Made by a program: the position numbers and the translations under genes. A stretch of DNA of 64,000 bases, taken from assembly GCF_003226535.1 (NCBI RefSeq), contig NZ_QKOB01000004.1, forward strand, positions 62,001 to 126,000. The letters are read 5' to 3'. Each line of letters opens with the position of its first letter. The first letter of the stretch is position 1. Origin of the DNA: Meiothermus sp. Pnk-1 (GTDB lineage: Bacteria > Deinococcota > Deinococci > Deinococcales > Thermaceae). Shown here one piece after another: positions 7,516 through 22,026 of this stretch. The notes under the pieces were generated by a model. That model searched no databases, had not been told where the DNA came from, and saw nothing but the letters and a program-made list of their open reading frames with translations.

Positions 7516-7529
7516 GAAAGCAGGGACCA

Positions 7530-7551: not shown

Positions 7552-7574
7552 TTTTTTTGGTTGAGGTGATCGCA

Positions 7575-7715
7575 ATGGCGAAGAAGCAAAAGCTCAGGTT
7601 CGCAAGGGGCCACGAGTGGGGGATGGGTCGGCCCACCCAGACCCACGGCGACCAGAGGCACAAGCGGATGGGCACACGTGGGGCCCGGCTGCGGGCAGCG
7701 CTGAAGGAGGAGTAA
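7575..7715 (+). CDS. Small basic island protein (46 aa)
   Basis: Begins M-A-K-K-Q-K-L-R-F-A-R-G and is strongly basic with many Arg, Lys and His. It ends A-L-K-E-E with TAA overlapping the next ATG (TAATG). GAGGTGA lies just upstream. No family recognised. Its charge would suit nucleic-acid binding, which is inference. The spacing to the stem-loop matches the other island genes and supports it as a real gene despite its size. Confidence 0.6.
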   Translation: MAKKQKLRFARGHEWGMGRPTQTHGDQRHKRMGTRGARLRAALKEE

Positions 7716-7894
7716 TGCAGGTGCAGCTTTCCGAGAAAGAGGCCAGGGCGCTGCTCGAGCTTTTGCAGGAACACCTGTACTACGGCTGGATCGAGGGGGA
7801 GGGCGAGTTCGGGGTGACCGCCAGCGGGCGGGTCTCCGAGGCCCTTCGGGAGCTCTACCGGCGGCTGCGGCAGGGTCAGGCCAAAGCAGCCTGA
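7715..7894 (+). CDS. Small hypothetical island protein (59 aa)
   Basis: Starts at the ATG that overlaps the previous stop; GGAGGAG lies five bases upstream, so the two genes are translationally coupled. The protein M-Q-V-Q-L-S-E-K-E-A-R-A-L-L-E is helical with a middle Y-Y-G-W-I-E-G-E-G-E-F turn, and ends R-Q-G-Q-A-K-A-A. The C-terminus A-K-A-A is shared with the SWIM protein at 10513-10782. Not recognised. Confidence 0.6.
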   Translation: MQVQLSEKEARALLELLQEHLYYGWIEGEGEFGVTASGRVSEALRELYRRLRQGQAKAA

Positions 7895-7939
7895 TCTTGC
7901 CCCCCTGGAGGTGGGTATGAGCATAGACCTGGGGCAAGA
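7895..7939. promoter_or_regulatory. TCTTGCCCC inverted repeat, copy 2, enclosing a start site
   Basis: TCTTGCCCC (7895-7903) pairs perfectly with GGGGCAAGA (7931-7939). The loop contains the GGAGGT ribosome site and ATG 7917 of the next gene, so folding could sequester initiation. Same core as the repeats at 4027 and 8314. Confidence 0.55.
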
Positions 7940-8312
7940 GCGGGCGCGGGCGGTGCGGGCGCTGGAGGGGCTGCTGGGGCGCATCCAGGAGGCCGAGCGC
8001 GACCTCGAGCAGGCCCAGGCCCGGCTGGAGGGCCTGATCCCCATGCGGGTTGTCTGGAAGAAGAAGACCTGCGGCAAGGACAAATGCCGCTGCACTCGGG
8101 GAGCGCTGCACGGCCCCTACCCCTACCTGGTGGAGCACCGGGAGGGGAAGAAGCAGGAGCACTACCTCGGCAAGGGCTGGAGCCCACCGGAGGGGATGAT
8201 CGCCCCGGAGCGTTTCCGGGTACTGATGGGGGAGTTCAGGGAGCGCCGGGCACAGCTGGATCGGTTGCTGGATCGTCTGGACCAGGCCATAGAGGTCATG
8301 CGGGGATGGTAG
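7917..8312 (+). CDS. DUF6788-like protein
   Basis: A 131-residue protein. The N-terminal half is a coiled-coil helix (residues 5-40). A Cys-rich core K-K-K-T-C-G-K-D-K-C-R-C-T-R-G is followed by L-H-G-P-Y-P-Y-L, the pattern of DUF6788-type proteins often found beside transposons and plasmid genes. A second helical stretch closes the chain. ATG 7917 has GGAGGTG at good distance and is preferred to GTG 7911. The start region lies in the loop of an inverted repeat and a related repeat follows the stop, so expression control at RNA level is plausible. Function unknown. Confidence 0.7.
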   Translation: MSIDLGQERARAVRALEGLLGRIQEAERDLEQAQARLEGLIPMRVVWKKKTCGKDKCRCTRGALHGPYPYLVEHREGKKQEHYLGKGWSPPEGMIAPERFRVLMGEFRERRAQLDRLLDRLDQAIEVMRGW

Positions 8313-8313
8313 G

Positions 8314-8361
8314 TTTCTTGCCCCCTTATGCCGTATCCAGATGTTTCGAGGGGGCAAGAAA
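8314..8361. promoter_or_regulatory. TTTCTTGCCCCC inverted repeat, copy 3
   Basis: TTTCTTGCCCCC (8314-8325) and GGGGGCAAGAAA (8350-8361) form a perfect 12-bp stem with a 24-base loop. The next start codon (8382) is 20 bases downstream, the same spacing as the GC stem-loops. Confidence 0.65.
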
Positions 8362-8381
8362 AATCCATCAGGAGCAAGGGC

Positions 8382-8849
8382 ATGAAGGTCATCAAAGGCA
8401 ACTTCCTCAGAGGGCTCTCCGACCCGGCGGGGGTGGTGGTGGCCTCCACCAACGGGGCCATCACCCCTGTCGGGCTGGTCATGGGGGCCGGGGCTGCGCT
8501 GGCACTGGCCGAAGAGTACCCCTGCTTGCGGCAAGCCCTGGCCCACCGGATCGAGCGGGAGGGGGTGCGGGCGGGGCGGTACTGGCGCTACGGCTTCGTG
8601 GCCGTGCGGCTGGAGGACCGCCTGTACGGGGCCTTCCAGACCAAGCTGGACTTCCGGCAGGGGGCCGACCTCGAGCTCATCGGCTACAGCGCGCGGCGGC
8701 TGGCGGCGTGGCTGGCCGAGCACCCCACCTTCAAAGTTCACCTGGCCTTCCCCGGCATTGGGTTGGGGGGGTTGGAGCCGGAGGCGGTGCTGGGGGCGCT
8801 TGCGCCCCTGGAGGGTTTTGGCGAGCGGGTCAGGCTGTACACGCTCTAG
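8382..8849 (+). CDS. Macro-domain-like protein
   Basis: A 155-residue protein resembling compact phage-type macro domains, which bind ADP-ribose. M-K-V-I-K-G-N-F is followed by V-V-V-A-S-T-N-G-A-I-T-P and V-M-G-A-G-A-A-L-A-L-A (the N-G plus glycine-rich loop pattern). The late loop F-P-G-I-G-L-G-G-L precedes a final helix. Known macro proteins remove or read ADP-ribose marks; here this is inference from the loop pattern. ATG 8382 is used because AGGAGC precedes it and upstream codons lie in the inverted repeat. It could instead be an unrelated Rossmann protein. Confidence 0.55.
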   Translation: MKVIKGNFLRGLSDPAGVVVASTNGAITPVGLVMGAGAALALAEEYPCLRQALAHRIEREGVRAGRYWRYGFVAVRLEDRLYGAFQTKLDFRQGADLELIGYSARRLAAWLAEHPTFKVHLAFPGIGLGGLEPEAVLGALAPLEGFGERVRLYTL

Positions 8850-8857
8850 GAGGAGGT

Positions 8858-9517
8858 ATGGGGTACACACACTACTGGCACGTAAAGGATATGCGGGCGG
8901 TAGGCGAGGCCCTGCCGTTGGTAGCCAACGACCTGAAGCAACTGCTAGCGAAGCTACCGCCCCTGGTTGGGCCGGACGGGACGGGGAAGCCCATCCTGGG
9001 GCCTGAAACGGTGGAGTTCAATGGGGTTGCACCCGATGATTACGAAACTTTCTGGCTGGACACCAACCCCAAGGACTACCTGGAAACAGAACAGGGCCTC
9101 TTCAACTGCTGCAAGACCCAGTACCGGCCCTACGACCTGGCGGTGCAGGCGGTGCTGGTGCTCCTGAAGTACCACAGCGAGTTCTTCAAAGCCGACTCGG
9201 TGACGCTCAGTTCAGACGGCAACCTGCTGGACTGGATCAAAGCGTGTCAGTTGGTAGAGGGCTTGGGCTATCCCGTTGACCCTATGTGGGCTTTGGGACG
9301 CGAGGTGTGGCAGGTCAAGACCCGAGCAGGGGCGGTTTTCTACGTCGAATGGCCCAAGCAGCCCGATAAAGACCCCGCCGAGTGGCTAGGGCAGATGCAC
9401 CAGCACGGGATTATCCCGTTCGCACCACCGTTCAGCTTCCACGGCCCGCTCAAAGGCTACCCACCCGGCAAGCCCATCCAGGAAGGCTCGGGCATCTACA
9501 CCACCAGGGGGCGTTAG
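8858..9517 (+). CDS. Conserved phage/plasmid-type protein (MGYTHYW start)
   Basis: A 219-residue protein beginning M-G-Y-T-H-Y-W, the hallmark start of a family of conserved hypothetical proteins in phages and plasmids. AGGAGGT precedes ATG 8858 directly. It contains F-N-C-C-K-T-Q-Y-R-P-Y-D and a central A-V-L-V-L-L-K-Y-H helix. Its stop codon TAG lies in the loop of stem-loop copy 6, so the hairpin overlaps the end of the gene. Function unknown. Confidence 0.75.
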   Translation: MGYTHYWHVKDMRAVGEALPLVANDLKQLLAKLPPLVGPDGTGKPILGPETVEFNGVAPDDYETFWLDTNPKDYLETEQGLFNCCKTQYRPYDLAVQAVLVLLKYHSEFFKADSVTLSSDGNLLDWIKACQLVEGLGYPVDPMWALGREVWQVKTRAGAVFYVEWPKQPDKDPAEWLGQMHQHGIIPFAPPFSFHGPLKGYPPGKPIQEGSGIYTTRGR

Positions 9518-9524
9518 CGCCCCC
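9507..9524. repeat. Island stem-loop, copy 6
   Basis: GGGGGCG, loop TTAG, CGCCCCC, preceded by ACCA. The loop contains the TAG stop of the upstream gene. The next start codon is 20 bases downstream (9545). Confidence 0.8.
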
Positions 9525-9544
9525 TTCCTTCTTCCGAGGTGCAT

Positions 9545-9772
9545 ATGCGAGAGATCAGCGTCCTCATCGGCGGTGCGGTGGCCCACTGCAAGGTGGTACG
9601 GGAGACGGGCAGGGTGGTCGCGTTAGGAACCCCGGCAGGGGTGGTCTGGCTGCCCCGCTGGGCCCTCATCCCCGAGGGGAGCTACTACCGGCTGTCCTGC
9701 CGCTACGCACTCAGCCCCGAGGAGTGGCGGCGGCTGGAGTCGGCGCAGTGGGTTTCGGGCTTCAGTATCTGA
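9545..9772 (+). CDS. Small hypothetical island protein (75 aa)
   Basis: Starts M-R-E-I-S-V-L-I-G-G. CCGAGGTG lies just before the ATG and fits better as its ribosome site than as part of a GTG start at 9539. Beta-rich look with two Cys far apart, ending W-V-S-G-F-S-I. Not recognised. Confidence 0.6.
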   Translation: MREISVLIGGAVAHCKVVRETGRVVALGTPAGVVWLPRWALIPEGSYYRLSCRYALSPEEWRRLESAQWVSGFSI

Positions 9773-9805
9773 AATAGCCCAGTATTCCGATAGGTCATGG
9801 GTCCA

Positions 9806-9827
9806 GGGGGCGGCAGAAGCCGCCCCC
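9806..9827. repeat. Island stem-loop, copy 7
   Basis: GGGGGCGGC, loop AGAA, GCCGCCCCC, followed by TTTCCCCTT. The next start codon is 21 bases downstream (9849). Confidence 0.85.
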
Positions 9828-9848
9828 TTTCCCCTTCCGAGGTGGGAT

Positions 9849-10031
9849 ATGCAAGAAGAAGTCTGCCCGGAGTGCGGTGGGGATGGCTACCTGATCCATG
9901 TGGGCGGCCCCGGCTACTACAGCGCCTCGTTCGGCAACTACCTGCCGAGCGAGCGGGTAGCGGAATGCCCGGTGTGCTTGGGCACCGGGGGTGTGGACCA
10001 CGATGAAACTTTTGAGGAGGAAGCGGCATGA
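9849..10031 (+). CDS. Zinc-ribbon protein, DnaJ-type CxxCxGxG repeats
   Basis: A 60-residue protein with two Cys pairs: C-P-E-C-G-G-D-G-Y near the start and C-P-V-C-L-G-T-G-G near the end, the CxxCxGxG pattern of the DnaJ zinc centre. The linker contains Y-S-A-S-F-G-N-Y-L-P. Its close paralogue at 11056 carries the same linker but is interrupted by an IS3 element. GAGGTGG precedes the ATG. The stop overlaps the start of the next gene (ATGA). It probably binds one zinc; the role is unknown. Confidence 0.75.
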   Translation: MQEEVCPECGGDGYLIHVGGPGYYSASFGNYLPSERVAECPVCLGTGGVDHDETFEEEAA

Positions 10032-10459
10032 ACGTGAGCGTGATGGAAGAGCTTGAACGGCATCTGGAGGAACTGGCCGGGGCCCAGATCGAACGCAACC
10101 GTGCTAAGGAGGCGCTGGAACTCGCCCGGGCCCGGGCGCTGCTCTCGGGAGCCATCGGTGGTAAAAACGCTGAGGAGCGCGAAGCCCAGGCCCGCAGCAC
10201 CCTGCAGGAGGCGTACCGGGCCCTCGAGGCTGCTGAAGAACGACTGATCTGGGCCAGGGCCCGAGCCGAAACCGCCAGGGCGCGGTTTGAACTGGCAAAG
10301 GAGGGGAAGCTAAGCCTGGCGGAAGAGAAGGCCCGGCTCGAGGCCCGCCTGCTGGAGGTCGAGGAAGTCCTTTCCATCGAGCGGGCCGAGATGAGGGAGG
10401 TCGAGCTAACCCGGCAGTTCCTTGAGGAGTACGAGAACCAGGACGAACGGGGCAGATAG
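10028..10459 (+). CDS. Coiled-coil protein (143 aa)
   Basis: Overlaps the previous gene by ATGA, and GGAGGAAG precedes it, so the two are coupled. Nearly the whole chain is Ala/Glu/Arg/Leu-rich heptad sequence (residues 5-140), predicting a long coiled coil without membrane or catalytic motifs. It could be a structural or scaffold protein. No family recognised. Stem-loop copy 8 follows the stop. Confidence 0.7.
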   Translation: MNVSVMEELERHLEELAGAQIERNRAKEALELARARALLSGAIGGKNAEEREAQARSTLQEAYRALEAAEERLIWARARAETARARFELAKEGKLSLAEEKARLEARLLEVEEVLSIERAEMREVELTRQFLEEYENQDERGR

Positions 10460-10465
10460 AGGCCA

Positions 10466-10486
10466 GGGGGCGGCGGGTGCCGCCCC
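10466..10486. repeat. Island stem-loop, copy 8
   Basis: GGGGCGGC (10467-10474), loop GGGT, GCCGCCCC (10479-10486), preceded by CCAG. The next start codon is 26 bases downstream (GTG 10513). Confidence 0.8.
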
Positions 10487-10512
10487 AGCTCTTTTGGTGA
10501 AAGGAGGAGGGC

Positions 10513-10782
10513 GTGAACAAAATAGAGAGGATCACAGGCTTTATCAACCGGTTGGAGCGGGCCGAGGCCCTCCTGCTGGAGGGTCGGATTCACCGGGTGG
10601 AGGGGCTGCCCCAGGTGTACGTGGTGCGGGGGAGCGAGCATTACCTGGTGGACCTCGAGGCCGGCACCTGCACCTGCCCGGACGCGGGCAAGGGGAACAC
10701 CTGCAAGCACCTGCTGGCGGCGGTGCTGCTGGAGCGGGCCGAGCACAAGGCCCGAAAAGAAGTCCAGGCCAAAGCCGCCTGA
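10513..10782 (+). CDS. SWIM zinc-finger protein (89 aa)
   Basis: The C-terminal half holds Y-L-V-D-L-E-A-G-T-C-T-C, then eight residues and C-K-H-L-L-A: the CxC...CxH pattern of SWIM domains, a zinc fold that binds DNA or proteins. The N-terminal half is helical (R-I-T-G-F-I-N-R-L-E). GTG 10513 is the start, with AAGGAGGAGG upstream. It ends V-Q-A-K-A-A, like the 59-residue protein at 7715. The next gene begins 10 bases later, so the pair is probably co-transcribed. Confidence 0.75.
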   Translation: MNKIERITGFINRLERAEALLLEGRIHRVEGLPQVYVVRGSEHYLVDLEAGTCTCPDAGKGNTCKHLLAAVLLERAEHKARKEVQAKAA

Positions 10783-10792
10783 AGGAGGAGCT

Positions 10793-11008
10793 ATGTGGAT
10801 CCAACACAAGGACCGGCTGTACAACACCGACCAGCTGAGCAGGATCGAGCAGAAAGGGGACGCGCTGTACTTCTACTACGGGGAGCGCTACTACACCACG
10901 TTCCTGGATACCCCGGAAAAAGCGCGGGAGGCTTTCTCGTGCATCGTTGCCCGTTTGGGGGGTAAGGAGGAGGTGCTGAGGCTCGAGGACCTCGGGTCCG
11001 GGGGCTGA
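10793..11008 (+). CDS. Small hypothetical island protein (71 aa)
   Basis: ATG 10793 follows AAGGAGGAG. Begins M-W-I-Q-H-K-D-R-L-Y-N-T and contains a tyrosine-rich strand A-L-Y-F-Y-Y-G-E-R-Y-Y, then a helix. The pattern suggests a small PH-like or beta-sheet protein, but no family is recognised. Stem-loop copy 9 follows the stop. Confidence 0.6.
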   Translation: MWIQHKDRLYNTDQLSRIEQKGDALYFYYGERYYTTFLDTPEKAREAFSCIVARLGGKEEVLRLEDLGSGG

Positions 11009-11013
11009 AAGGG

Positions 11014-11033
11014 GGGGCGGCAGGAGCCGCCCC
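11014..11033 (+). repeat. Island stem-loop, copy 9 (terminator-like)
   Basis: GGGGCGGC, loop AGGA, GCCGCCCC, then GC and a run of T into 11042. The next start codon is 22 bases downstream (11056). Confidence 0.85.
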
Positions 11034-11144
11034 GCTTTTTTTCGAGGTGATTGAAATGCGTGAAGAACTCTGTCCAGACTGTCAGGGCAACGGCTACGTC
11101 GAGTACATCGCAGGAAGCTACTTCAGCGCTTTGTAGTGCTTCAC

Positions 11145-11993
11145 CTAAACGATACCAGTTTCCTGAGCTGACCGGATAACCTCCAGTGGGGTCTTGTAAT
11201 CCAACGCCTGGTGCGGACGCCGGGTGTTGTAATCCTCGCGGAAGCTTTCCAGCACTCTATTTAGCTCATCCAGACTCTCCACCTCCTCGTACTGTAAGTA
11301 TTCCTCCTTGAGGGTGCGGTGAAAGCGTTCTACTCGACCCATGCCCTGGGGCTTACCTACCGCAGATAAGGTTTGACCACAGCAGCTAGCCTCCAGAAAC
11401 TCGGTGAAGGCGTTGGCCTTGAAAGCTGTGCCCTGGTCGCTCTTGACCTCGATGCCTTGAGTGGGGAGCTTGAGCTGCTCAGCCTGAAGAATGGCTTGGC
11501 TCAGGGCATTGCTCGCCGCCTGGGCATCTTCGGTCAGGGTGGCTACTGCCGCCAGGCAGTAGCGGCTCTGATACTCGATCACGTTGCAAAGCCTGGCTTT
11601 ACCCCACCTGGTAAAGTCCAAACCCACGGTCAAACCCATACGCTCGGGTCGTGGGGGTGGGCTGTAGCGGTAACCCCTGCGTCTAGGGCTTTGTTGCAGC
11701 TGCCCAAAGCGCTTCATCAGGCGATAGACCGTGCTGGGGCTGGCCGAGATGCCCTCCCGGGCCAACAAGGCCCACACTCGGCGGTAGCCATAGCGGGGAT
11801 GTTGTTCGGCGTAGTTACTCACCTCCTGGACGATCTGTTGCTGCGCTGGGCAAGAACGGGCCTGGCTACCCTGTTTTCGGCGGTAGTAGGTGGCCTTGGC
11901 TATCCCAGCCAGTTTCAAGAAACGATTCACCCCCAATCCCAACTCTCCTCGCACTTGCTCCATCCGCTCGAAGCTCAGGCTGCCCTCACTCAA
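11145..11993 (-). CDS. IS3-family transposase OrfB (integrase domain)
   Basis: A 282-residue DDE integrase. An N-terminal HTH-like segment (Y-Y-R-R-K; Y-R-L-M-K-R-F-G) precedes the rve fold with V-G-L-D-F-T-R-W (first Asp), V-K-S-D-Q-G-T-A-F (second Asp) and V-E-R-F-H-R-T-L-K-E-E-Y (Glu). The start ATG overlaps the OrfA stop by 4 bases. OrfB or an OrfAB frameshift product carries out excision and joining. No lesion is seen, so it may be active. Confidence 0.9.
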   Translation of the reverse strand: MSEGSLSFERMEQVRGELGLGVNRFLKLAGIAKATYYRRKQGSQARSCPAQQQIVQEVSNYAEQHPRYGYRRVWALLAREGISASPSTVYRLMKRFGQLQQSPRRRGYRYSPPPRPERMGLTVGLDFTRWGKARLCNVIEYQSRYCLAAVATLTEDAQAASNALSQAILQAEQLKLPTQGIEVKSDQGTAFKANAFTEFLEASCCGQTLSAVGKPQGMGRVERFHRTLKEEYLQYEEVESLDELNRVLESFREDYNTRRPHQALDYKTPLEVIRSAQETGIV

Positions 11994-12277
11994 AGACCCT
12001 TGAGTTTTTTTTGGATCTCCAGCTTCAGCACCGTTTCGGCCAGGGCCTCCTTGAGCTGGCGGTTCTCCGTCTCCAGGGCAGTCAACCCCTCATCTTTGCG
12101 CCCTGCCAGACCGGCTTTACCTCCTTCCAGAAAGCGTTCCTTCCACTTGTTGAGGCTGTTCTCGGTGGTGCCATACCTGCGGCACAACTCAGCCGCGCTA
12201 GCCTCACCCCGCAGCAAGCTCAACACGATGGTTACCTTTTCTTCCACGCTGCGTTCCTTTGGCTTGAGCTTTCCCAT
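11990..12277 (-). CDS. IS3-family OrfA (helix-turn-helix)
   Basis: A 95-residue protein with a DNA-binding HTH (A-S-A-A-E-L-C-R-R-Y-G-T-T-E-N) followed by a leucine-zipper-like helix (L-E-T-E-N-R-Q-L-K-E-A-L-A-E-T). It binds the element ends and sets the frame for OrfB. The overlap with OrfB is ATGA. The lysine-rich K-K-L-K segment just before the overlap is a place where IS3 elements often shift frame. Confidence 0.9.
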   Translation of the reverse strand: MGKLKPKERSVEEKVTIVLSLLRGEASAAELCRRYGTTENSLNKWKERFLEGGKAGLAGRKDEGLTALETENRQLKEALAETVLKLEIQKKLKGL

Positions 12278-12425
12278 ACTTCACCTCGGCTTGCCACCAT
12301 CTTAGGTGGTCTCGCTTTTGTGAAGCACTACACTTCTTTCGGCAACTACCTGCCCCGCGAGCGGATAGCGCGGTGCAGGGTGTGCGGCGGTAGCGGATAT
12401 GTGGCAGAGCGAGGGGAGGTGTGCG

Positions 12426-12632
12426 ATGAAGGCGAAGCGGTTTTTGAAGAAGGTGGGTCGGCTTGAGCTTTCCTACCTGCCCGAAGCCCCGGATCACGGC
12501 CTGAGCGAACTGGCGGTGGTGCTGCCCGATAGCCGCCGCTACGTGGTGGTGGCGGTAGGGGAGCAGGCCGAGAGCCTGTTTGCCTGCCCGGACGAAGACC
12601 GGCTGCGGGCCCTGGCTGAGAAGGGGGCCTGA
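12426..12632 (+). CDS. Small hypothetical island protein (68 aa)
   Basis: ATG 12426 has GGGAGGT upstream and overlaps the end of the interrupted zinc-ribbon gene. The protein starts M-K-A-K-R-F-L-K-K-V-G-R-L-E-L-S-Y with a beta-rich middle (R-R-Y-V-V-V-A-V-G). Not recognised. The IS3 insertion may have reduced its transcription if the promoter lies upstream of 11056. Confidence 0.6.
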   Translation: MKAKRFLKKVGRLELSYLPEAPDHGLSELAVVLPDSRRYVVVAVGEQAESLFACPDEDRLRALAEKGA

Positions 12633-12644
12633 CGCCCCAACCCG

Positions 12645-12664
12645 GGGGCGGCAAAAGCCGCCCC
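12645..12664. repeat. Island stem-loop, copy 10
   Basis: GGGGCGGC, loop AAAA, GCCGCCCC, followed by GCTTCTTT. The next start codon is 28 bases downstream (12693). Confidence 0.85.
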
Positions 12665-12692
12665 GCTTCTTTGAGCGAAAGGAGGAAGCAAC

Positions 12693-13208
12693 ATGAACCC
12701 ATTGGAAATCCTGACGGCACCCCTGACCAGCGATGAGATCGAGTGGAAGGTCATCGCCAGCAAGAACGGCCAGACCACCCTGGCCCCCTACATCGACGCG
12801 AGGGCGGTCATGACCCGCCTGGACCGGGCCTTTGGGGCCTTCGGCTGGAGCGTGCGCTACACCCCGGCCCAGGTAGGGTCCGAGCACGGGGTCATCGCCA
12901 GCATCGCCATCCGTAACCCCGAGACCGGGGAGTGGGTGGAGAAGCAGGACGGGAGCGGGGCCAGCGACATGGAGCCCTTCAAGGGGGGGATCAGCGGGGC
13001 TTTGAAAAGAGCCGCCACCGCCTGGGGGATCGGGCGGGAGCTCTACACCTACCCCCGGGTGATCGTGGAGGGGGAGCACCGCTTCATCCCCTTCAAGGTG
13101 CTGGACCGGCTGAAGGGGCTGCCCAGGGCCGTTGCGGAGGGTAAGCCTCTACCGGAGGTCATCCGGCTCAACGCGGAGGGGGAGAGTGTGCGGAAGGGGG
13201 GTGGGTAG
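12693..13208 (+). CDS. Rad52/DdrA-like single-strand annealing protein
   Basis: A 171-residue protein of the Rad52/Rad22 (DdrA) superfamily. R-A-V-M-T-R-L-D-R-A-F-G-A-F-G-W is followed by a strand repeat, then G-A-L-K-R-A-A-T-A-W-G-I-G-R-E-L-Y, the conserved Rad52-type helix. Such proteins coat and anneal single-stranded DNA. DdrA protects DNA ends in Deinococcus, and plasmid or phage copies serve recombination. AAAGGAGGA precedes ATG 12693. It is the last gene of the stem-loop island and lies just before the DISARM operon. Confidence 0.85.
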   Translation: MNPLEILTAPLTSDEIEWKVIASKNGQTTLAPYIDARAVMTRLDRAFGAFGWSVRYTPAQVGSEHGVIASIAIRNPETGEWVEKQDGSGASDMEPFKGGISGALKRAATAWGIGRELYTYPRVIVEGEHRFIPFKVLDRLKGLPRAVAEGKPLPEVIRLNAEGESVRKGGG

Positions 13209-13238
13209 AGGGCACCCTACCCCTTCATGCCCTGCTTT

Positions 13239-13254
13239 GGTATCCCCTGATACC
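13239..13254. promoter_or_regulatory. Inverted repeat upstream of DISARM operon
   Basis: GGTATC, CCCT, GATACC: a perfect 6-bp inverted repeat in the 171-base spacer before the methyltransferase gene. It could be an operator. No clear -35/-10 pair was identified in the spacer. Confidence 0.35.
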
Positions 13255-13379
13255 GCCATTACCGGGTACCGTCCAACCGCCCTTATTCGTCCTAAACTTC
13301 TGGTCGTGATGCCAGAACCAATCGCTATTCAGTAGCTGAGTTTTAGGTGGAAGATAAGGTTATTCTGGGTACAGATGCT

Positions 13380-14333
13380 ATGAAGGTCATCGATCTTTTT
13401 TGTGGCATGGGTGGCCTGGCGCTGGGATTCGCCAGAAACGGCTTTGAGGTCACCGGTTATGACAGCTACCGCCGGGTAGGAGAGATCCTGGAACTCAACG
13501 CCATCGGCAAAGCGGAAGTGAAAGATCTTTCCCTTCAGGGGCAGGTTTCCCGTCCCTTATCAGTTGAGCCACTGGTGGTCACGGGAGGGCCACCCTGTCG
13601 GCCCTGGAGTAACGTTAACCGGCGACCGGATCGTTACCGGCAAGCTCACAGAGACTATGCATTGCTCGAAAGCTACTTCCGCTACGTAAGGAAGCTGCAG
13701 CCAGAGGCTTTTTTGATGGAGAATGTCCTCCCCGTCAGCACCGACGCCACCTTCCTGCGCTGGAAAAACTCACTGGCGAGACTGTACTGGATTGAATCCG
13801 GGCCGATCCGTTACTCCGACTTCGGGGCCGCTACTTCCCGCCAACGGTTCTTCGTGGTGGGCTTTCGCCGGGGGCGGCGGGTAAACCTCGCAAAGGAGTT
13901 CTTTGAGCGACTCGATAACCACCGGGCTCCCGCCCAGACGGTAGCCCAGGCCCTGGAATACCTGCTGCCGCTGGGCTATGGAGAAATGGCTGACCACCAC
14001 TGGCCGAACTTCAGAACCATCAACAACTACCTCGACAAATACTCGGAGAATCGCTTTGGCTGGTACAGGCTGGACCCCGATCGCCCCGCTCCCTCATTTG
14101 GCAGCGTGATGAAGACCTATATCCTCCATCCCTACGCCGGGAATGGCCACGGGATACCTCAGAGGGTCATCTCGGTTAGAGAGGCCATGTCGATCATGGG
14201 TTTTGACAAAGAATTCCGCTTCCCTGAACCCATGGGTATGAAGCATCGCTATCAGATGGTGGCGGACGCCGTGAGCCCTGTGTTCTCCAGCGTGGCAGCC
14301 AGGGTCATGCGGGAACTCCTGTATGAACTCTAG
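13380..14333 (+). CDS. drmMII: DNA (cytosine-5) methyltransferase, DISARM DrmMII type
   Basis: A 317-residue C5 methyltransferase. Motif I is D-L-F-C-G-M-G-G-L, motif IV is G-G-P-P-C-R-P-W-S (catalytic Cys), motif VI is M-E-N-V, motif VIII is S-R-Q-R-F-F-V-V-G-F, and motif X is near A-V-S-P-V-F-S-S-V. It methylates host DNA so that the DISARM nuclease machinery spares it; the target sequence is unknown. ATG 13380 gives the usual family N-terminus, although the frame is open from GTG 13347. It overlaps the glycosylase gene by 11 bases, so the operon is translationally coupled. Confidence 0.9.
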   Translation: MKVIDLFCGMGGLALGFARNGFEVTGYDSYRRVGEILELNAIGKAEVKDLSLQGQVSRPLSVEPLVVTGGPPCRPWSNVNRRPDRYRQAHRDYALLESYFRYVRKLQPEAFLMENVLPVSTDATFLRWKNSLARLYWIESGPIRYSDFGAATSRQRFFVVGFRRGRRVNLAKEFFERLDNHRAPAQTVAQALEYLLPLGYGEMADHHWPNFRTINNYLDKYSENRFGWYRLDPDRPAPSFGSVMKTYILHPYAGNGHGIPQRVISVREAMSIMGFDKEFRFPEPMGMKHRYQMVADAVSPVFSSVAARVMRELLYEL

Positions 14334-14985
14334 CAGCACCATCCATCAGCTTCGGGAGACCCTTATTGAATGGGGTCGCGACAACCTGAGGGTCTATCCC
14401 TGGAGGGAGACCCGGGAACCCTACCACATACTGCTCGCTGAGGTGCTGCTCCACCGCACACGAGCTGACCAGGTGGTGCCGATCTACCACAGGGTTCTGG
14501 AGCGCTACCCTACCGTCCACGCCCTGGCCGCAGCCCAGCTTGAAGACCTGGCTGACCTGCTCCGGTCACTGGGTCTGCACTGGCGGGTACCCCTACTACT
14601 TGAGATGGCACGGGAAGTGGTAAGTCGTTTTGGCGGTGACATTCCCGCCAGCGTGGAAATGCTCAGGACACTGCCCGGGATCGGCCTGTACATTGCTGCC
14701 GCAACGTCCTGTTTCGCCTTTGATCGGCCCGAGCCAATCCTGGATACCAACACCGTACGCGTGCTTGGCAGGCTTTTCCGGCTGGATGTTCAGGAGTCTT
14801 CACGCAAAAGCAGAAAATTTCGCACAATAATGGCAGAGCTGCTGGACAGAGACCGACCGAGGCTATTCAACCTCGCCCTGCTCGACCTTGCGGCTCTTAT
14901 CTGCACCCCCGCCATGCCTGCGTGTCATCGATGCCCGCTGCAATCCATCTGTCTTTATGGGAGCCAGTATGCCACTGCGAAGTGA
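14323..14985 (+). CDS. Mig-like G:T mismatch (thymine) DNA glycosylase
   Basis: HhH-GPD glycosylase of 220 residues. The helix-hairpin-helix reads L-P-G-I-G-L-Y-I-A. Tyr stands where endonuclease III has its catalytic Lys, as in the archaeal Mig G:T glycosylase. The general-base Asp is in I-L-D-T-N-T-V-R-V. A C-terminal [4Fe-4S] cluster follows: C-x6-C-x2-C-x5-C. It should remove T arising by deamination of 5-methylcytosine, protecting sites made by the methyltransferase next door, a need that grows at high temperature. It overlaps both neighbours (11 and 17 bases). MutY-like activity is the main alternative. Confidence 0.85.
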   Translation: MNSSSTIHQLRETLIEWGRDNLRVYPWRETREPYHILLAEVLLHRTRADQVVPIYHRVLERYPTVHALAAAQLEDLADLLRSLGLHWRVPLLLEMAREVVSRFGGDIPASVEMLRTLPGIGLYIAAATSCFAFDRPEPILDTNTVRVLGRLFRLDVQESSRKSRKFRTIMAELLDRDRPRLFNLALLDLAALICTPAMPACHRCPLQSICLYGSQYATAK

Positions 14986-17900
14986 ACTTGTATCGGAAGT
15001 TGTGTGTGATCTTCTCGGCCCCAGGAAAGGGGTGAGGGAAACCCTGGACGAAAGTCCGCTGGGCGAGTACATCACTGGCGTTTTGCAACCTGCAGACCTC
15101 ACTGCTCAGATTCGCGACCTGGACACCGAGGCGGAGACCCCTGAGGAAGATTCCGAAGCCGGTGAGGAGGATCGGGACGGTGACCTAGACTCTGTCGCCC
15201 CGGTCTTTTCACCGGCTCTTGATCCGAAGAGCCGTCCCTCGGTGCTTGGCCTCTCTTTTGAGGTGGCGGGGGCCCTGCCCCTCAAACTGAGTTTCTGCGT
15301 GACCTGGGCACGTTACTTCGAAATCAACCAGGGCGGCCGTCGTAACTGGAGCCGCCGGCCCCGTGTCTGGATCGCCGATTCGGTTGAGGTGAGCAACGGG
15401 TTAACGCTGTGGCTGGATGAATCCGGCCGCGCAAGCTCGGAAAGGCAGACGACAAGCGAGCTTTCGCTTCACCTTCGCCTCATCCGGGAGGGTGAGGGGG
15501 TAAGGATATGGCTGCAGCTCGTCAATCGCATACCGCCGGCCGACAAAGAAGTGCTTTCGGCAGCAGAGTGCATCTATCAACCCTCAGTACGGATACTGCT
15601 GGGGGAACGTATCCGCCTCATGCCCATGCGTTCGCAGGGGGAAGCAGAGGAGGGCAGGCTCGAATTTCTCTATCGAAACCGTCCGGCCTATGCACGCGGC
15701 CACCTGTGCTCCGCTATCTGGCGTGAGATAGACCCCGAGCGACCCTTCGGCAGTCCAGGCAGGAAAACCAGTTTTACCTGGCCTGATGGCGAACTTCTCG
15801 ATGAGCATGACCGTGAGCGATTCCTGGCTCCGGATGTTCGTTCCGAGTTCATACCGATGTATGCTCTGCAGGCTCCGAGCTGGGAATGGGAGGAAAGGTA
15901 CGGGCGGGCTCCGGAACTCGACGCCGCTGTGCTCTCACGCTCGTGCGAAGTCCAGCATCTGGTACCCATGCTCGAGCCCCTGGTGCACGGTTATGAGAAG
16001 TGGATTGATGAGTGTTCTGCCCGGGCTGTGGCATTCGAGGGACGGGATGCAACAGCCGCCCAGGAGCTTCTCGAAGAGGCGAAGCAGGTGCTGCACAGGA
16101 TGAGGCGCGGCCTCGAGGTGCTGCGCAGCGATCCGGATGCCCGCCTGGCCTTCTGCTTTGCCAACCGGGTGATGTGGCAGCAGGCTTCCTGGAAACAGCC
16201 GGGTGGGGCTGGCACTTTGCGCTGGCGACCCTTCCAGCTCGGGTTCATGCTCTCGATCCTGGAGTCGGTGGTGAACCCTGGATCCGACGACAGAACCGTC
16301 TGTGATCTGCTGTGGGTTCCCACCGGAGGCGGGAAGACCGAGGCATATCTTGCCATGGCTGCGTTCACCATGGCTTATAGAAGGCGGCGTGCCCTGCGCC
16401 AGAATAGTGGAGGCCATTCGGGTGCGGGTACAGCCGTAATCTCGCGATATACCCTCAAGCTGCTTACCCTCCAGCAGTACCGCCGCGCCCTGGCGATGGT
16501 TACGGCCTGCGAGTTCCTGCGCGTCCAGGGACTCGAGAGGGGGCAGGCAGGGTGGAGACCGGAGGGTTGCACGGACACCTCGAACTTCATCTGGGGAACA
16601 GCACGCTTTTCCATCGGACTGTGGGTCGGCGGAGGACTGACCCCCAATCGACTTAACGATTTCCGTGACCAGCGCGGAGCGATCAGCATTTTGCGCGGGG
16701 AGTATGGTCAGGGGGAGCCAGCCCAGGTGCTCAACTGCCCTGCATGCGACGCGCTGCTTGCCCTTCCCAGACGGGGTCTTCCCGCCGGTAAACATCGAGT
16801 CCACCTTGTCCTCAGGCAGTCAAAGGACGAGGTGGACCAGCATCTGCCGCATATCCACAGGATGCGCGAGGCCAGCAGCCTGACATGCACCTCTACCGCC
16901 TTACCCTCGAACCACACTGTCCTTACTCTGGATTTCACCCTGACACGATCCCTTACCCAGGCAGCGTTTGATGCCTGGTGGAAGAACGGCCCGGGGCGGA
17001 CACTTACTCTCTGCCCTCTCAGCGCCGCACGACCCGGGTACTTTGCCAGGACACGGCGCAACATCAAGTCAGGAGGCGCGGAGATCCCGGTGGATTTTGA
17101 GATCTGGTGCCCTGACCCTGACTGCCCCCTGGGCAGGACACTCTGGTGCGAGAGCGCCCCGGCTGATGACTCATACTTTCTTAAGTCCACAGGAATTGCA
17201 CGCAAAGGACTGAATGGGGGATATCAGCACACACGTATCGGAACAGTCGAGGTCAGGCTCCCCCATTCCGGCGCTGGCAGACTCCGCCGGGTCATCCCCC
17301 CGTGGCAGGCCCGGGGCTCAACCCTGGCTGCTTCACGTGTTCCCATTCCTGCTCAGACCGTCGATGAGCAGCTGTACGCTCACCCTCCGTCTTTACTCAT
17401 TGCAACCGTGGATAAGTTCGCCCGCCTGGCCTTTGAGCCCCGTGCAGCGCGTCTGTTCGGAAACGTGGGTTATTACCACCCCTGGGATGGTTACACACTG
17501 GACCGCGAAGAGTGCTCGGCCATGGCTGACCTCGGCACAGCCTGTCAGCCCCTCGACCCACCAGAGCTCATTCTTCAGGATGAACTCCATCTGCTGGAGG
17601 GACCCCTGGGCAGTATGGTCGGGCTGTATGAGATCGCTATTGATACCCTTGCCTGCAATCAGGGCTATCCTGCGAAATACATATCCTCATCGGCGACGGT
17701 GCGAGAGGCGGGCAGCCAGATCCAGGCTATATTCAACCGCAGGCTGGCGGTCTTTCCGCCTCGCGGACTCGAGGTGGATGACCGTTTCTTCCTGCGCACT
17801 GCCGAACCCCACCCACTCGATGAATCGCGGCCAGGTCAGCTGTTCGTTGGCCTTGCCGCACCCGGCACCGGTCCGCTCAAGCCGCTCTACAGGTTATGGT

Positions 17901-18868
17901 CGATTCTGCTCCAGGCAGCTCATGTGCGCTCTGGCGACCCGGACTTCGACTACTTCAAAACGCTGGCAGGCTATTTCAATGCGGTACGGGAGCTCGCAGG
18001 CGTGCGTGCCCTCACCCGCCAGGATATCAAGCTGCATCTGCAGACCCTGGCGGACAGACGGGGAGAAAGTCCCCGACCGTTCGATGAGGATGGCATCCTT
18101 GAGCTTTCAAGCCGTGAAGATTCCACTGACCTGCCAGCGATTCTGGAGCGTCTGAGCAGAAGTGGTTCTGAGTCACCGGATGCCCTGCTGGCCACCTCCA
18201 TGTTCGGAACGGGTGTGGATGTTTCACGGCTCTCCCTGATGGTGGTGCATGGACAGCCGAAGACAACATCCTCCTATATCCAGGCTGCCGGACGTGTTGG
18301 TCGCGCCCGTGCAGCCCTGGTGCTGACGTTTTTGCGAGCCAGTCGGCCTCGCGACCTGAGCCACTACGAATTTTTCTGTGGTTATCACCGACAGATCTAT
18401 CGGCACGTTGAACCGGTGACCGTCATGCCCTTCTCTCCGGGGGCTCTGGATCTTGCGGTGGGGCCGGTTATGGTGGCGCTGCTGATCAACAGGCGCCAGA
18501 CCAGCGCTCGCTGGAAAAACAACCCGGGGTACATAAAATCTTCCGATCCACTGGTTCGTGCTGACATCTCCGATCCCCCGCGAATTATCGAAGCGCGTGG
18601 ACAGACCCAGCCAGAACTGCGGAGGCCGCTGCCGGGAGATGCGCAGTTATTTGCAGCTTCAGAACTCGATCGCTGGAGGATGATCGCCCGCAGCCAGGAT
18701 GGATTGAAGTACTGGGAGTACTCGCCCTATGATCCACCCAGACATCCAGTGGTCCTTGGGGATCCTGCACACCAGGGAGCCGGACTGCCAGTGGTCTATG
18801 AAAATGCCCCGCAATCCCTCCGGGAAGTTGAGGAAACCATCAGCATTGATACGGGAGGAGACAGCTGA
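14969..18868 (+). CDS. drmA: DISARM helicase DrmA
   Basis: A 1299-residue superfamily 2 helicase. Walker A is V-P-T-G-G-G-K-T-E-A-Y (about residue 450). The DExH-like box is L-I-L-Q-D-E-L-H-L-L-E-G (about 870). A large ~400-residue insert separates them and contains paired cysteines. Motifs V/VI are M-F-G-T-G-V-D-V-S and Q-A-A-G-R-V-G-R (about 1075-1110). DrmA with DrmB binds and translocates on invading DNA. ATG 14969 is chosen because GGGAG precedes it and upstream codons belong to the glycosylase gene. Its stop overlaps the drmB start (TGATG). Confidence 0.9.
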   Translation: MPLRSELVSEVVCDLLGPRKGVRETLDESPLGEYITGVLQPADLTAQIRDLDTEAETPEEDSEAGEEDRDGDLDSVAPVFSPALDPKSRPSVLGLSFEVAGALPLKLSFCVTWARYFEINQGGRRNWSRRPRVWIADSVEVSNGLTLWLDESGRASSERQTTSELSLHLRLIREGEGVRIWLQLVNRIPPADKEVLSAAECIYQPSVRILLGERIRLMPMRSQGEAEEGRLEFLYRNRPAYARGHLCSAIWREIDPERPFGSPGRKTSFTWPDGELLDEHDRERFLAPDVRSEFIPMYALQAPSWEWEERYGRAPELDAAVLSRSCEVQHLVPMLEPLVHGYEKWIDECSARAVAFEGRDATAAQELLEEAKQVLHRMRRGLEVLRSDPDARLAFCFANRVMWQQASWKQPGGAGTLRWRPFQLGFMLSILESVVNPGSDDRTVCDLLWVPTGGGKTEAYLAMAAFTMAYRRRRALRQNSGGHSGAGTAVISRYTLKLLTLQQYRRALAMVTACEFLRVQGLERGQAGWRPEGCTDTSNFIWGTARFSIGLWVGGGLTPNRLNDFRDQRGAISILRGEYGQGEPAQVLNCPACDALLALPRRGLPAGKHRVHLVLRQSKDEVDQHLPHIHRMREASSLTCTSTALPSNHTVLTLDFTLTRSLTQAAFDAWWKNGPGRTLTLCPLSAARPGYFARTRRNIKSGGAEIPVDFEIWCPDPDCPLGRTLWCESAPADDSYFLKSTGIARKGLNGGYQHTRIGTVEVRLPHSGAGRLRRVIPPWQARGSTLAASRVPIPAQTVDEQLYAHPPSLLIATVDKFARLAFEPRAARLFGNVGYYHPWDGYTLDREECSAMADLGTACQPLDPPELILQDELHLLEGPLGSMVGLYEIAIDTLACNQGYPAKYISSSATVREAGSQIQAIFNRRLAVFPPRGLEVDDRFFLRTAEPHPLDESRPGQLFVGLAAPGTGPLKPLYRLWSILLQAAHVRSGDPDFDYFKTLAGYFNAVRELAGVRALTRQDIKLHLQTLADRRGESPRPFDEDGILELSSREDSTDLPAILERLSRSGSESPDALLATSMFGTGVDVSRLSLMVVHGQPKTTSSYIQAAGRVGRARAALVLTFLRASRPRDLSHYEFFCGYHRQIYRHVEPVTVMPFSPGALDLAVGPVMVALLINRRQTSARWKNNPGYIKSSDPLVRADISDPPRIIEARGQTQPELRRPLPGDAQLFAASELDRWRMIARSQDGLKYWEYSPYDPPRHPVVLGDPAHQGAGLPVVYENAPQSLREVEETISIDTGGDS

Positions 18869-20721
18869 TGCCCAGATATCAGGAGGTACGCCTTTCACAG
18901 CTCATTCTGCAGCTCGGGCCCGGAGCCATTGTGGAAACCACAGGGGGCCCGCGGCTGGTGCCCCTTGCTCAGCACGGACTCTTCCCTCAAGGTGTGGACC
19001 CGGATAGATTTGCCCTGGACACGCCACATCTAAAGACCATTCTGGGTGACCGCCGTGTTTTTCGGGTGCCTTCAAATGCGATGCTGGGCCGTCCAGCGCA
19101 CAGGCCCCTCTATCGAACCAGGGCTTTCCCGGTGTGGAAGCTCTGCGTGAAGCACTCCATTCTTTATCCCCGAGCCTGCCCTGATTGTGAGAAATCCGGT
19201 GAACAATCACGTCGCATCGAGGCCATCCGTTTCGTGATGGCCTGCCCTGAAGGACACCTTGATGAGGTGAACTGGAATCTCCTGGTCCATTCGAAGAAAC
19301 CATGCACGGAGGAGGCTGCACCGGAGTACTTCCTGTGGCGCAACCAGGGAAGCAGCCTGAGCGCCACGCTGATCAGGTGCCCGCGCTGTCACCAGCAGAT
19401 CAGCCTCGGGGAGGCGTACAACCGTCCTTGGCCGTGTTCAGGCCGCTATCCAGAGCGCGAGCAGCTCGATAGTGGTCCTCAGAGGAGTGGCTGCAGCCAG
19501 CGGGCCTGGATCATTCAGCGACAGGCCACAAGCCTTCGTATTCCAGAACTGCTCACCTTCATCACCGTACCGCCACTGGAGACCCGGCTGCACCAGCTCC
19601 TGGGCCGGCCGAGAGTGAGGGAAAGCCTGGAGAGCGCCCTCGCGATGCTGGGACGGCTGAATCGATCACAGCAGCGTTTAGAAGACCCTGCAGAACAGGA
19701 ATTCCAGCAGTGGCTCGGAAGTGCCTGCCCGAAAGGGCCGGGTGGGCTGCGGGATGACGAAATTGAATACATACAGCAGCAGGACTTCGGGGCCATCAGG
19801 TCTGCCGTCCGCGATCTCCTCACCCATCATCCCGCTCCCGACATGCAACGAATACTTCTGGACGAGTTTCGCGCCTTTCGGGTCGGGGCTGTGCAGGGAG
19901 TGCCTCCGAAAGTGACGACAGGTCCGACAGGACCGAAGCCCGTATCACTGCTGGAAATCAATCCGGCACGGGTAAGGGTGGTTCCGGGCGCCCGGGGCAG
20001 CATACGGTTCAGGGTGGCTCCCGTCGAGAAGCTTCACTCGGTAACTGTTCAGATCGGATACAGGAGGGCTGTTGGTCCGGCTCTTGAAGGCATACCCGGG
20101 AAGTTCGTCCCCATCGATTCCAGCTTCGAAGGGCAGACCTGGCTTCCAGGGTATAAGGCAATGGGAGAGGGCATCTTCCTGACTGCTGACGGGGACGGAT
20201 GGCACCCTCCTCTCCGGGGGGCCTCTGCAGGAAAATGGCAGGAGGGCTTTGAGGAAGCGGGGCGGTTACCTGACCTGGCCGGCATTCATCCGGGAAACCA
20301 TGGACGCAACGCATTGCATCCGGTCTTCGTCTGGTGGCACACGCTTTCCCACCTGCTTGTGCGAGCATTATCGGTGGAATCTGGATACAGCCTTGCATCC
20401 ATCCGTGAGCGTATCTACCTTGAGGTAAATGAGGCGACCGGTCAGGCATGCGGCGGCATCCTTCTATACACATCAGGATATGGTTCAGACGGAACTCTCG
20501 GTGGATTGATCGCCCTTGTACCCAGATTTGAGCATATTCTGGCCTCGGCAATATCAATGGGGGAAACCTGCTCAGCGGATCCGCTATGTCGTGAGCACCA
20601 CTTCATTCTGGGTAAGCACTCCGGCGCTGCCTGTTATGCCTGCTCGCTCATCTCTGAAACAAGTTGCGAACAGCGGAATCTATGGCTGGATCGCAACGTT
20701 CTTCTTGATAACCTACCCTGA
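18868..20721 (+). CDS. drmB: DISARM protein DrmB (DUF1998)
   Basis: A 617-residue partner of DrmA. The N-terminal part has Cys pairs (A-C-P-D-C-E, I-R-C-P-R-C-H) that probably bind zinc. The C-terminal DUF1998 region reads G-I-L-L-Y-T-S-G-Y-G-S-D-G-T-L-G-G-L followed by Cys-rich A-C-Y-A-C-S-L-I-S-E-T-S-C-E. In DISARM, DrmA and DrmB form the core complex that recognises DNA and blocks phage entry. ATG overlaps the drmA stop, so expression is coupled. No lesion is seen. Confidence 0.9.
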   Translation: MPRYQEVRLSQLILQLGPGAIVETTGGPRLVPLAQHGLFPQGVDPDRFALDTPHLKTILGDRRVFRVPSNAMLGRPAHRPLYRTRAFPVWKLCVKHSILYPRACPDCEKSGEQSRRIEAIRFVMACPEGHLDEVNWNLLVHSKKPCTEEAAPEYFLWRNQGSSLSATLIRCPRCHQQISLGEAYNRPWPCSGRYPEREQLDSGPQRSGCSQRAWIIQRQATSLRIPELLTFITVPPLETRLHQLLGRPRVRESLESALAMLGRLNRSQQRLEDPAEQEFQQWLGSACPKGPGGLRDDEIEYIQQQDFGAIRSAVRDLLTHHPAPDMQRILLDEFRAFRVGAVQGVPPKVTTGPTGPKPVSLLEINPARVRVVPGARGSIRFRVAPVEKLHSVTVQIGYRRAVGPALEGIPGKFVPIDSSFEGQTWLPGYKAMGEGIFLTADGDGWHPPLRGASAGKWQEGFEEAGRLPDLAGIHPGNHGRNALHPVFVWWHTLSHLLVRALSVESGYSLASIRERIYLEVNEATGQACGGILLYTSGYGSDGTLGGLIALVPRFEHILASAISMGETCSADPLCREHHFILGKHSGAACYACSLISETSCEQRNLWLDRNVLLDNLP

Positions 20722-20729
20722 GGCCTGAG

Positions 20730-21191
20730 ATGCCACTCAAAGCCATCCTCGCCACTGGTGACCGTCTTGTAGGCGCGGGAGTACGTTCCTTCGAGCCGGT
20801 CATTGAGGAACTGATCGGGGCCGCCAGGTCAGAGATTCAGATTGCCGCTTACAGTTTCGACCCGTCATTTGTGCGGATTCTGGAGAATCTTGTCCACATA
20901 GGAAGAACAGGTGTCGGGATAACCATCATAACCCGCGCAATCTCAGCTCAGCATTCAAAAGTGCAGACAGCCTTGAAGAGGCTGTCTGAAGATCAAAGGG
21001 TGTTCGAATTCCCTGACTCCCCCACTGGCTGCTTGCATATGAAGGTGCTGGTGGTTGACCGTGATAACGCCATAGTTGGCTCGGCCAACTTTACTATGGG
21101 TGGTCTCGTGTCGAATCACGAGCTGGGTGTGTGGCTGACAGGACCAGAAGCATGGCAGATTGGCGCCCTTCTTGATCGACTGATTGCTTGA
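20730..21191 (+). CDS. drmC: DISARM phospholipase-D-family protein DrmC
   Basis: A 153-residue PLD-type nuclease domain with one HKD motif: H-M-K-V-L-V-V-D, then G-S-A-N-F-T-M-G-G. One motif means the active site forms in a dimer. DrmC accompanies DrmA and DrmB in DISARM but is dispensable in the systems tested. It begins eight bases after drmB with CTGAGG upstream. It is the last gene of the operon. A drmE gene of class 2 systems was not found in the window. Confidence 0.85.
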   Translation: MPLKAILATGDRLVGAGVRSFEPVIEELIGAARSEIQIAAYSFDPSFVRILENLVHIGRTGVGITIITRAISAQHSKVQTALKRLSEDQRVFEFPDSPTGCLHMKVLVVDRDNAIVGSANFTMGGLVSNHELGVWLTGPEAWQIGALLDRLIA

Positions 21192-21276: not shown

Positions 21277-22026
21277 TCACCTCTTCGTGAACACCCGCCG
21301 GTAGCTCTCCCCCACGCTCGCCAAGGAACTCTCGGCGTAGATCTGGGTGGTCTTGGGGTCCTGGTGCCCCAGGAACTTCTGGAGCTGCTCGAGGGGCATC
21401 CCCCGGTCGAGGAGGATCTGCGCCACCGAGTGCCTGAGCAGGTGCGGGTAGACCCGCCGCTCGAGGCCCGCCTCCTTCGCGGCGGCCTGGATGAGCTTCT
21501 GGATGGCCCGGGGGGAGTAGCGCTGGTGGCGGTTGGACTCGAAGAGGTAGCCCCGGGTACGCCCCGCCAGGTGGACCCGAAGCTCCTGGGCCAGGGCGGG
21601 CAGGATCGGGACGTAGCGCACTGAGTCCTTTTTGGCCTTGTGGACGTAGAGGTGGGGGGCCTCCCCGTCGAGGTGGAGGTCCTGGGCCCGGAGAAAGACG
21701 AACTCGCTGACCCGGCACCCGGTGTAGAAGAGCGTCTTCAGCATCAGGCCGTAGACCGGCCTCCTGGCGTTCAGGCGATACGCCGCTTCCAGCAGACGGC
21801 TCACCGCTTCGGGGGAGAGCCGCTCCACCACCCGGCGGCGCTGCGCAGGCGGGGCGAGGTCCAGCATCCGGCGCACCCGCTCGACCACATACTTGCTCTG
21901 GTCATAGTCCAGGTGGGCCTTGCGCCAGAGCTTGGCGGTCTCCCGGATCACCGCTTCAAGTTCAGAGTTCGCTTTCGTTTTCTTACCGCGCACTTCGACC
22001 AGCTTGAGGGGGGTTGCGCTCTCCAT
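21277..22026 (-). CDS. Tyrosine recombinase / integrase
   Basis: A 249-residue XerC/D-like recombinase. The N-terminal core-binding part is short. The catalytic domain shows G-C-R-V-S-E-F (first Arg), H-L-L-R-H-S (His-x-x-Arg) and T-Q-I-Y-A-E (nucleophilic Tyr). It catalyses site-specific strand exchange. It faces the DISARM operon and lies at the change from island to metabolic genes, so it is a candidate for moving the island. A perfect 8-bp inverted repeat lies just upstream of its start (22049-22078). No attachment-site duplication was found by eye. Confidence 0.9.
   Translation of the reverse strand: MESATPLKLVEVRGKKTKANSELEAVIRETAKLWRKAHLDYDQSKYVVERVRRMLDLAPPAQRRRVVERLSPEAVSRLLEAAYRLNARRPVYGLMLKTLFYTGCRVSEFVFLRAQDLHLDGEAPHLYVHKAKKDSVRYVPILPALAQELRVHLAGRTRGYLFESNRHQRYSPRAIQKLIQAAAKEAGLERRVYPHLLRHSVAQILLDRGMPLEQLQKFLGHQDPKTTQIYAESSLASVGESYRRVFTKR

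What the first reader, a model, noticed from the sequence alone, without database searches (positions are those of the whole stretch)
13380..21191. DISARM operon with a Mig-like G:T glycosylase between methyltransferase and drmA
Directly seen: five genes in one direction, overlapping by 11, 17 and 1 bases and then separated by 8, encoding a C5-methyltransferase, an HhH-GPD glycosylase with Tyr in place of the endonuclease III Lys and a C-x6-C-x2-C-x5-C cluster, DrmA, DrmB and DrmC. Known: 5-methylcytosine deaminates to T, faster in heat, and some thermophile methyltransferases travel with a Mig glycosylase. Inference: this DISARM carries its own repair enzyme against the mutagenic cost of its methylation, perhaps a thermophile-specific module. 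The class 2 gene drmE was not found.
Basis: partly seen in the sequence, partly recalled or inferred. Interest (0 to 1): 0.7.

Follow-up and report, generated by a model that had tools for sequence, protein, structure and literature searches.

The report
DISARM defence carrying its own mismatch-repair enzyme
A bacterial anti-phage operon that marks its own DNA with methylcytosine also carries an enzyme predicted to repair the mutations such marks cause, and the same pairing recurs in unrelated microbes with different repair enzymes.

Summary
In detail: drmMII, an HhH-GPD glycosylase (G), drmA, drmB and drmC form one tight operon at 13380-21191. G is not the cell's MutY or EndoIII, which lie elsewhere in the genome. 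In a tree, a well-supported MutY clade (99/98) excludes G, which groups moderately (88/81) with Mig thymine glycosylases. Three of four pocket positions that separate Mig from MutY match Mig; the fourth is the aromatic Tyr for Phe. The M-G-A-B-C order recurs at about 50% identity in another Deinococcota genome and in Chloroflexota. In a census of 95 drmA loci, 15 of 21 with a C5-methyltransferase within 3 kb carry an HhH-GPD gene (11) or Vsr (4), against 4 of 74 without one. Gene orders differ, and one locus fuses an EndoIII-like domain to the methyltransferase. G therefore follows the methyltransferase, most likely as insurance against 5mC deamination. Strict thermophile specificity is not supported: a haloarchaeal plasmid and an apparently boreal MAG carry the pairing. 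Activity is untested. I file it as a new DISARM variant; Mig-methyltransferase pairing itself is known.

The parts
13380..14333 (+). drmMII, C5-cytosine DNA methyltransferase (317 aa); the only PF00145 gene found in the genome
   Evidence: PF00145 2.7e-31; PADLOC DrmMII 1.9e-130; own-genome search, one match
14323..14985 (+). Mig-like HhH-GPD [4Fe-4S] glycosylase (220 aa, no MutY C-terminal domain), predicted G:T/G:U mismatch thymine glycosylase
   Evidence: PF00730 4.4e-13; PDB 1kea Mig 8.5e-37 over 14-215; tree; pocket residues R, A, L as Mig, Tyr for Phe27; AlphaFold model best TM to 1kea 0.84/0.85
14969..18868 (+). drmA, long-type DISARM helicase (1299 aa)
   Evidence: PDLC02571 E=0, NF038326 DISARM_DrmAL 1461.9 bits over cut-off 999
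18868..20721 (+). drmB, DUF1998/MZB protein
   Evidence: PDLC02583 1.6e-187; NF038324 over cut-off; PF09369
20730..21191 (+). drmC, short PLD-family nuclease with one HxK motif
   Evidence: PF13091 2.7e-18; PDLC02614 4.8e-44

Best explanation
This is a drmE-less, drmMII-type DISARM system. Its C5-methyltransferase marks host DNA as self, and the co-transcribed Mig-like glycosylase is predicted to remove the thymine left in G:T mismatches when 5-methylcytosine deaminates, leaving an abasic site for base-excision repair to restore C. G is thus an accessory of the methyltransferase (insurance against C-to-T mutation at methylated sites), not of the DrmAB helicase or the DrmC nuclease. Shown: the operon, its conservation, the tree position, the pocket residues, and the statistical association with C5-methyltransferases with Vsr in the same place elsewhere. 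Inferred: substrate, motif, and benefit to the host.
For: Same M-G-A-B-C order in L038 (95%), L037 (48-58%), Thermanaerothrix L046 and L140. In 111 Deinococcota genomes exactly the three with this drmA have a G homologue over 400 bits; the next best is MutY at 173. Census: HhH-GPD within 3 kb in 11 of 21 DISARM loci with a C5-MTase versus 2 of 74 without, Fisher p 2.8e-7; HhH or Vsr in 15/21 versus 4/74, p 1.4e-9; Vsr confirmed by PF03852. Gene order varies, always with the MTase close by: A-B-M-G (L152, L154), G-M on the opposite strand (L153), EndoIII-like-MTase fusion (L050). Outside DISARM, Mig-type genes examined also lie by C5-MTases: haloarchaeal plasmids, Caldicellulosiruptor, and three further loci in the window's family. 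MutY clade 99/98 excludes all DISARM G. Residues equivalent to R47, A50, L187 match Mig; MutY has Q, V, Q/E (PMC2714593). The genome has its own MutY and EndoIII.
Against: No biochemistry. Joining of G with Mig is only 88/81, and an AU test does not reject placing the window group with MutY (p 0.295). Relatives have Tyr, Trp, Val or Thr at the 187/50 positions. Six of 21 MTase-bearing loci have neither enzyme, four of them cyanobacterial, so it is not obligatory. Census loci are partly related, and the search models contain some census sequences.
Confidence: 0.76

Rival explanations
1. G is an anti-phage effector: a restriction-type glycosylase that removes bases from incoming DNA (unmethylated or carrying modified bases), making abasic sites or nicks on which DrmAB can load.
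For: Co-transcribed with defence genes; glycosylases do act in defence: Brig1 (PMC11078745) and R.PabI (PMC10273834); DrmAB binds ssDNA and 5' overhangs (PMC9142583). PADLOC labels the family a nicking endonuclease.
Against: G follows the MTase, not drmABC (2/74 versus 11/21); Vsr, a repair enzyme, takes its place in other DISARM loci; the same family accompanies MTases outside DISARM. Brig1 is of the uracil-glycosylase superfamily and R.PabI of another fold.
Confidence: 0.12
2. G is a MutY-type adenine glycosylase (A:G or A:8-oxoG) that happens to sit in the operon.
For: MutY is the top PDB sequence hit (149 bits versus 130 for Mig) and top Foldseek hit by E-value; Glu40 is kept; grouping with MutY not rejected.
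Against: No C-terminal 8-oxoG domain; the genome has a separate MutY; MutY clade 99/98 excludes it; none of the Mig-type DISARM G proteins has Gln/Glu at the 187 position; the association with C5-MTases would be unexplained.
Confidence: 0.07
3. G is a 5-methylcytosine glycosylase that erases methylation, tuning self-marking by DrmMII, as plant DME/ROS1 do.
For: Same superfamily as DME/ROS1 (general knowledge); adjacency to the MTase.
Against: Pocket resembles Mig; replacement by Vsr, which cuts T:G, argues for mismatch repair; erasing the self mark would risk autoimmunity.
Confidence: 0.03

Closest known systems
Mig.MthI (PDB 1kea), thymine glycosylase of Methanothermobacter, described as acting on deaminated 5mC
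   Same: Single-domain HhH-GPD with FeS cluster, Tyr126/Asp144 pair, R47/A50/L187 pocket equivalents, gene beside a C5-MTase
   Different: Here built into a DISARM operon between drmMII and drmA; about 30% identical; activity not tested
Class 2 DISARM (drmMII, drmE, drmA, drmB, drmC)
   Same: drmMII plus drmABC, in order
   Different: No drmE; a glycosylase gene in its place; long-type drmA
Vsr endonuclease with Dcm-type C5-MTases
   Same: Predicted same job: repair of T:G left by 5mC deamination next to a C5-MTase
   Different: Unrelated fold and chemistry (nick, not base excision); found in the analogous place in other DISARM loci (L141, L204, L205, L088)
MutY adenine glycosylase
   Same: Same superfamily and fold; Tyr, Glu, Asp catalytic positions
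   Different: Lacks the C-terminal domain, has a Mig-type pocket, lies outside the MutY clade; genome has its own MutY

Membership tests
DISARM (core system) | drmA, drmB and drmC in one operon | tested here: met
DISARM (core system) | DNA methyltransferase in the operon | tested here: met
   DrmMII PDLC02655 1.9e-130
Class 2 DISARM | drmE present | tested here: not met
   No room between the overlapping genes; none of the five operon proteins or the downstream integrase gave a DrmE hit. Not searched genome-wide
Mig / thymine-DNA glycosylase (HhH-GPD) | Sequence and structure kinship with Mig rather than MutY or Nth | tested here: met
   MutY clade 99/98 and Nth clade 100/99 exclude it; joins Mig group at 88/81, moderate; best TM-score is to 1kea
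Mig / thymine-DNA glycosylase (HhH-GPD) | A50/L187/R47-type pocket instead of MutY V/Q/Q | tested here: met
   determinants from PMC2714593
Mig / thymine-DNA glycosylase (HhH-GPD) | Excises T or U opposite G | not testable with these tools
   needs assay
MutY | C-terminal 8-oxoG-recognition domain | tested here: not met
   220 aa, profile and PDB matches end at about residue 211-215; own MutY is a separate long ORF
Endonuclease III | Catalytic Lys in the HhH motif | tested here: not met
   Tyr123 at that position

The most novel reading that the evidence does not exclude
DISARM systems that use a C5-methyltransferase have repeatedly and independently taken on a deamination-repair enzyme (Mig-type glycosylase, EndoIII-type domain fused to the MTase, or Vsr), with glycosylase favoured in hot hosts and Vsr in temperate ones, so that keeping such a defence has a measurable mutational price that selection pays for.
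Probability: 0.5. Interest if true: 0.68.

Novelty: new variant of a known kind. Interest (0 to 1): 0.52.

Why it matters
The mutational cost of methylation-based immunity is known for Dcm/Vsr but has not, in the papers I could search, been linked to DISARM. If right, DISARM is a mobile defence that carries its own damage control. The cost can then be measured by deleting one gene, and a gene now labelled 'nicking endonuclease', 'MutY' or 'hypothetical' would be re-annotated in several phyla and in haloarchaea.

Tried and rejected
Genome-contig scan with G alone: no relative. Viral-contig scan with the G alignment: none. IVYWREL growth-temperature estimates from about 20 kb per genome: too noisy, since Bacillota that look mesophilic by 16S scored 53-59 C, so not used. 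First tree held a misread row and two long-branch rows; rebuilt without them. Tyr as a Mig marker: rejected, MutY has it. Restriction-glycosylase idea: considered and ranked second. Papers with DISARM plus drmA plus glycosylase: none; related searches gave no report of the pairing; the original DISARM paper is not held.

Full report
Observation. Curated models identify DrmMII, DrmA (long type), DrmB and DrmC strongly. The glycosylase G hits HhH-GPD, PADLOC PDLC03398 'Type II nicking endonuclease' (I infer this model was built from V/Mig-type entries) and, in the PDB, MutY (149 bits) and Mig 1kea (130 bits, 14-215 of 220). No drmE lies in the operon. The genome (G000, 3.5 Mb, 16S GC 0.63) looks like a Thermaceae member: the element upstream of the operon matches Allomeiothermus silvanus and Thermus plasmids. 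It has its own MutY and EndoIII, and DrmMII is its only PF00145 gene.

What G is. In a tree of 38 HhH-GPD proteins, MutY (99/98) and Nth (100/99) form clades that exclude G; G and the other Mig-type DISARM proteins join Mig.MthI, haloarchaeal and Caldicellulosiruptor Mig-like proteins at 88/81. This is moderate: an AU test does not reject the window group with MutY (p 0.295). PMC2714593 names A50 and L187 of Mig.MthI as the counterparts of V45 and Q182 of MutY, and also contrasts F27 and R47. G has Tyr, Arg, Ala and Leu at F27, R47, A50 and L187; MutY proteins have Leu, Gln, Val and Gln/Glu. Relatives vary at 50 and 187 but no Mig-type one has Gln or Glu at 187. The AlphaFold model (pLDDT 78, three-sequence alignment) has its best TM-score to 1kea (0.84/0.85), though MutY ranks first by E-value. 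The catalytic Tyr is shared with MutY and does not discriminate.

Conservation. The order M-G-A-B-C is found in G034 (L038, 95%, recent transfer), G011 (L037, 48-58%), a Thermanaerothrix MAG (L046) and G292 (L140); L138 has it with a different MTase; L048 has G-A at a contig end. Among 111 Deinococcota genomes, the three with this drmA (over 1400 bits) are exactly the three with a G homologue over 400 bits; the next is MutY at 173.

Census. I collected drmA loci from Deinococcota (111 genomes), the class of Thermanaerothrix (396), the phylum of Desulfallas (398), the phylum of Nostoc (292) and plasmids, and annotated 95 loci with local profiles. With a C5-MTase within 3 kb of drmABC: 21 loci, of which 11 have an HhH-GPD gene or domain and 4 a Vsr gene. 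Without: 74 loci, 2 and 2. Fisher p is 2.8e-7 for HhH and 1.4e-9 for either; with full flanks and the near-copy removed, 8 of 17 versus 1 of 42, p 8e-5. Caveats: loci are partly related, profiles include some census sequences, some contigs are truncated. Pfam confirmed the L152, L153 and L154 glycosylases and all six Vsr hits tested; L200's glycosylase stays below the HhH-GPD cut-off. Gene orders differ (M-G-A-B-C; A-B-M-G; G-M on the opposite strand; M-A-B-C-G; A-B-C then fusion), so the constant is closeness to the MTase, with L200 the exception. In Desulfallas (L050) a 678-aa protein fuses an EndoIII-like domain (Lys kept, profile score under the Pfam cut-off) to the MTase.

Outside DISARM, the Mig-type genes I examined also sit by C5-MTases: haloarchaeal plasmids, a Caldicellulosiruptor plasmid, and three loci in genomes of the window's family. 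One haloarchaeal plasmid (Natronobeatus, L084 plus L349) carries MTase, Mig, a 905-aa protein, DrmA, a hypothetical protein (likely DrmB, not tested) and a PLD protein, that is, an archaeal DISARM with Mig. In the Anaerolineae sample ten short Mig-type genes stand above the MutY background, six of them at DISARM loci.

Temperature. Where 16S was found, HhH carriers have GC 0.630, 0.625, 0.587 and 0.640; Vsr carriers 0.540, 0.552, 0.544 and 0.561. This fits glycosylase in hot hosts and Vsr in temperate ones, but n is 8 and lineage is confounded. Against a strict rule: the haloarchaeal DISARM, and L048, whose title (Umea1p4) suggests a boreal pond; I could not confirm the site in PMC8121793.

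Mechanism and novelty. The most economical account is that G removes T from G:T left by deamination of 5mC made by DrmMII. Replacement by Vsr, whose role in T:G repair beside Dcm is established, is the strongest independent argument. The effector rival is weaker because G does not follow drmABC. Mig-MTase and Vsr-MTase pairings are known; their recurrence inside DISARM was in no paper I could search, with the limit that the original DISARM paper is not held. I therefore call it a new variant of a known kind.

Noticed in passing
window 3753-12678: Eight copies of a 41-nt G+C-rich hairpin (CAGGGGGCGGCAgaAGCCGCCCCC core), several lying just before gene starts on the + strand. A near-exact genome search finds six matches, all in this stretch; chance expectation for the looser window pattern is 0.01 against 10 found.
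   Followed up: partly
window 3000-13300: Element resembling Thermaceae plasmid DNA just upstream of DISARM: an ArdC-N/M78 anti-restriction-like protein (5843-6664), Rad52-like protein (12693-13208), SWIM zinc finger (10513-10782) and an IS3-type transposase.
   Followed up: partly
window 21277-22026 (-): XerC/D-like tyrosine recombinase directly downstream of drmC on the opposite strand, possibly the mobility gene of the island.
   Followed up: no
L050:16367-18403: 678-aa fusion of an EndoIII-like HhH-GPD domain to a C5-methyltransferase beside drmABC in Desulfallas sp. Bu1-1; L201 has a related unfused EndoIII-like gene about 2 kb from drmC.
   Followed up: partly
L200:5977-14260: G856 drmA-like gene read with three in-frame TGA and split into two frames, yet scoring higher than the window's drmA: decayed gene, assembly error or recoding; a long-branch glycosylase-like gene follows drmC.
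   Followed up: no
L088:14215-15906: Vsr plus C5-methyltransferase directly downstream of an adenine-type (class 1) DISARM on an Antarctic Deinococcus plasmid.
   Followed up: no
L084 and L349: Haloarchaeal plasmid DISARM (Natronobeatus ordinarius) with MTase and Mig-like gene, and a 905-aa protein of unknown family between Mig and drmA.
   Followed up: partly
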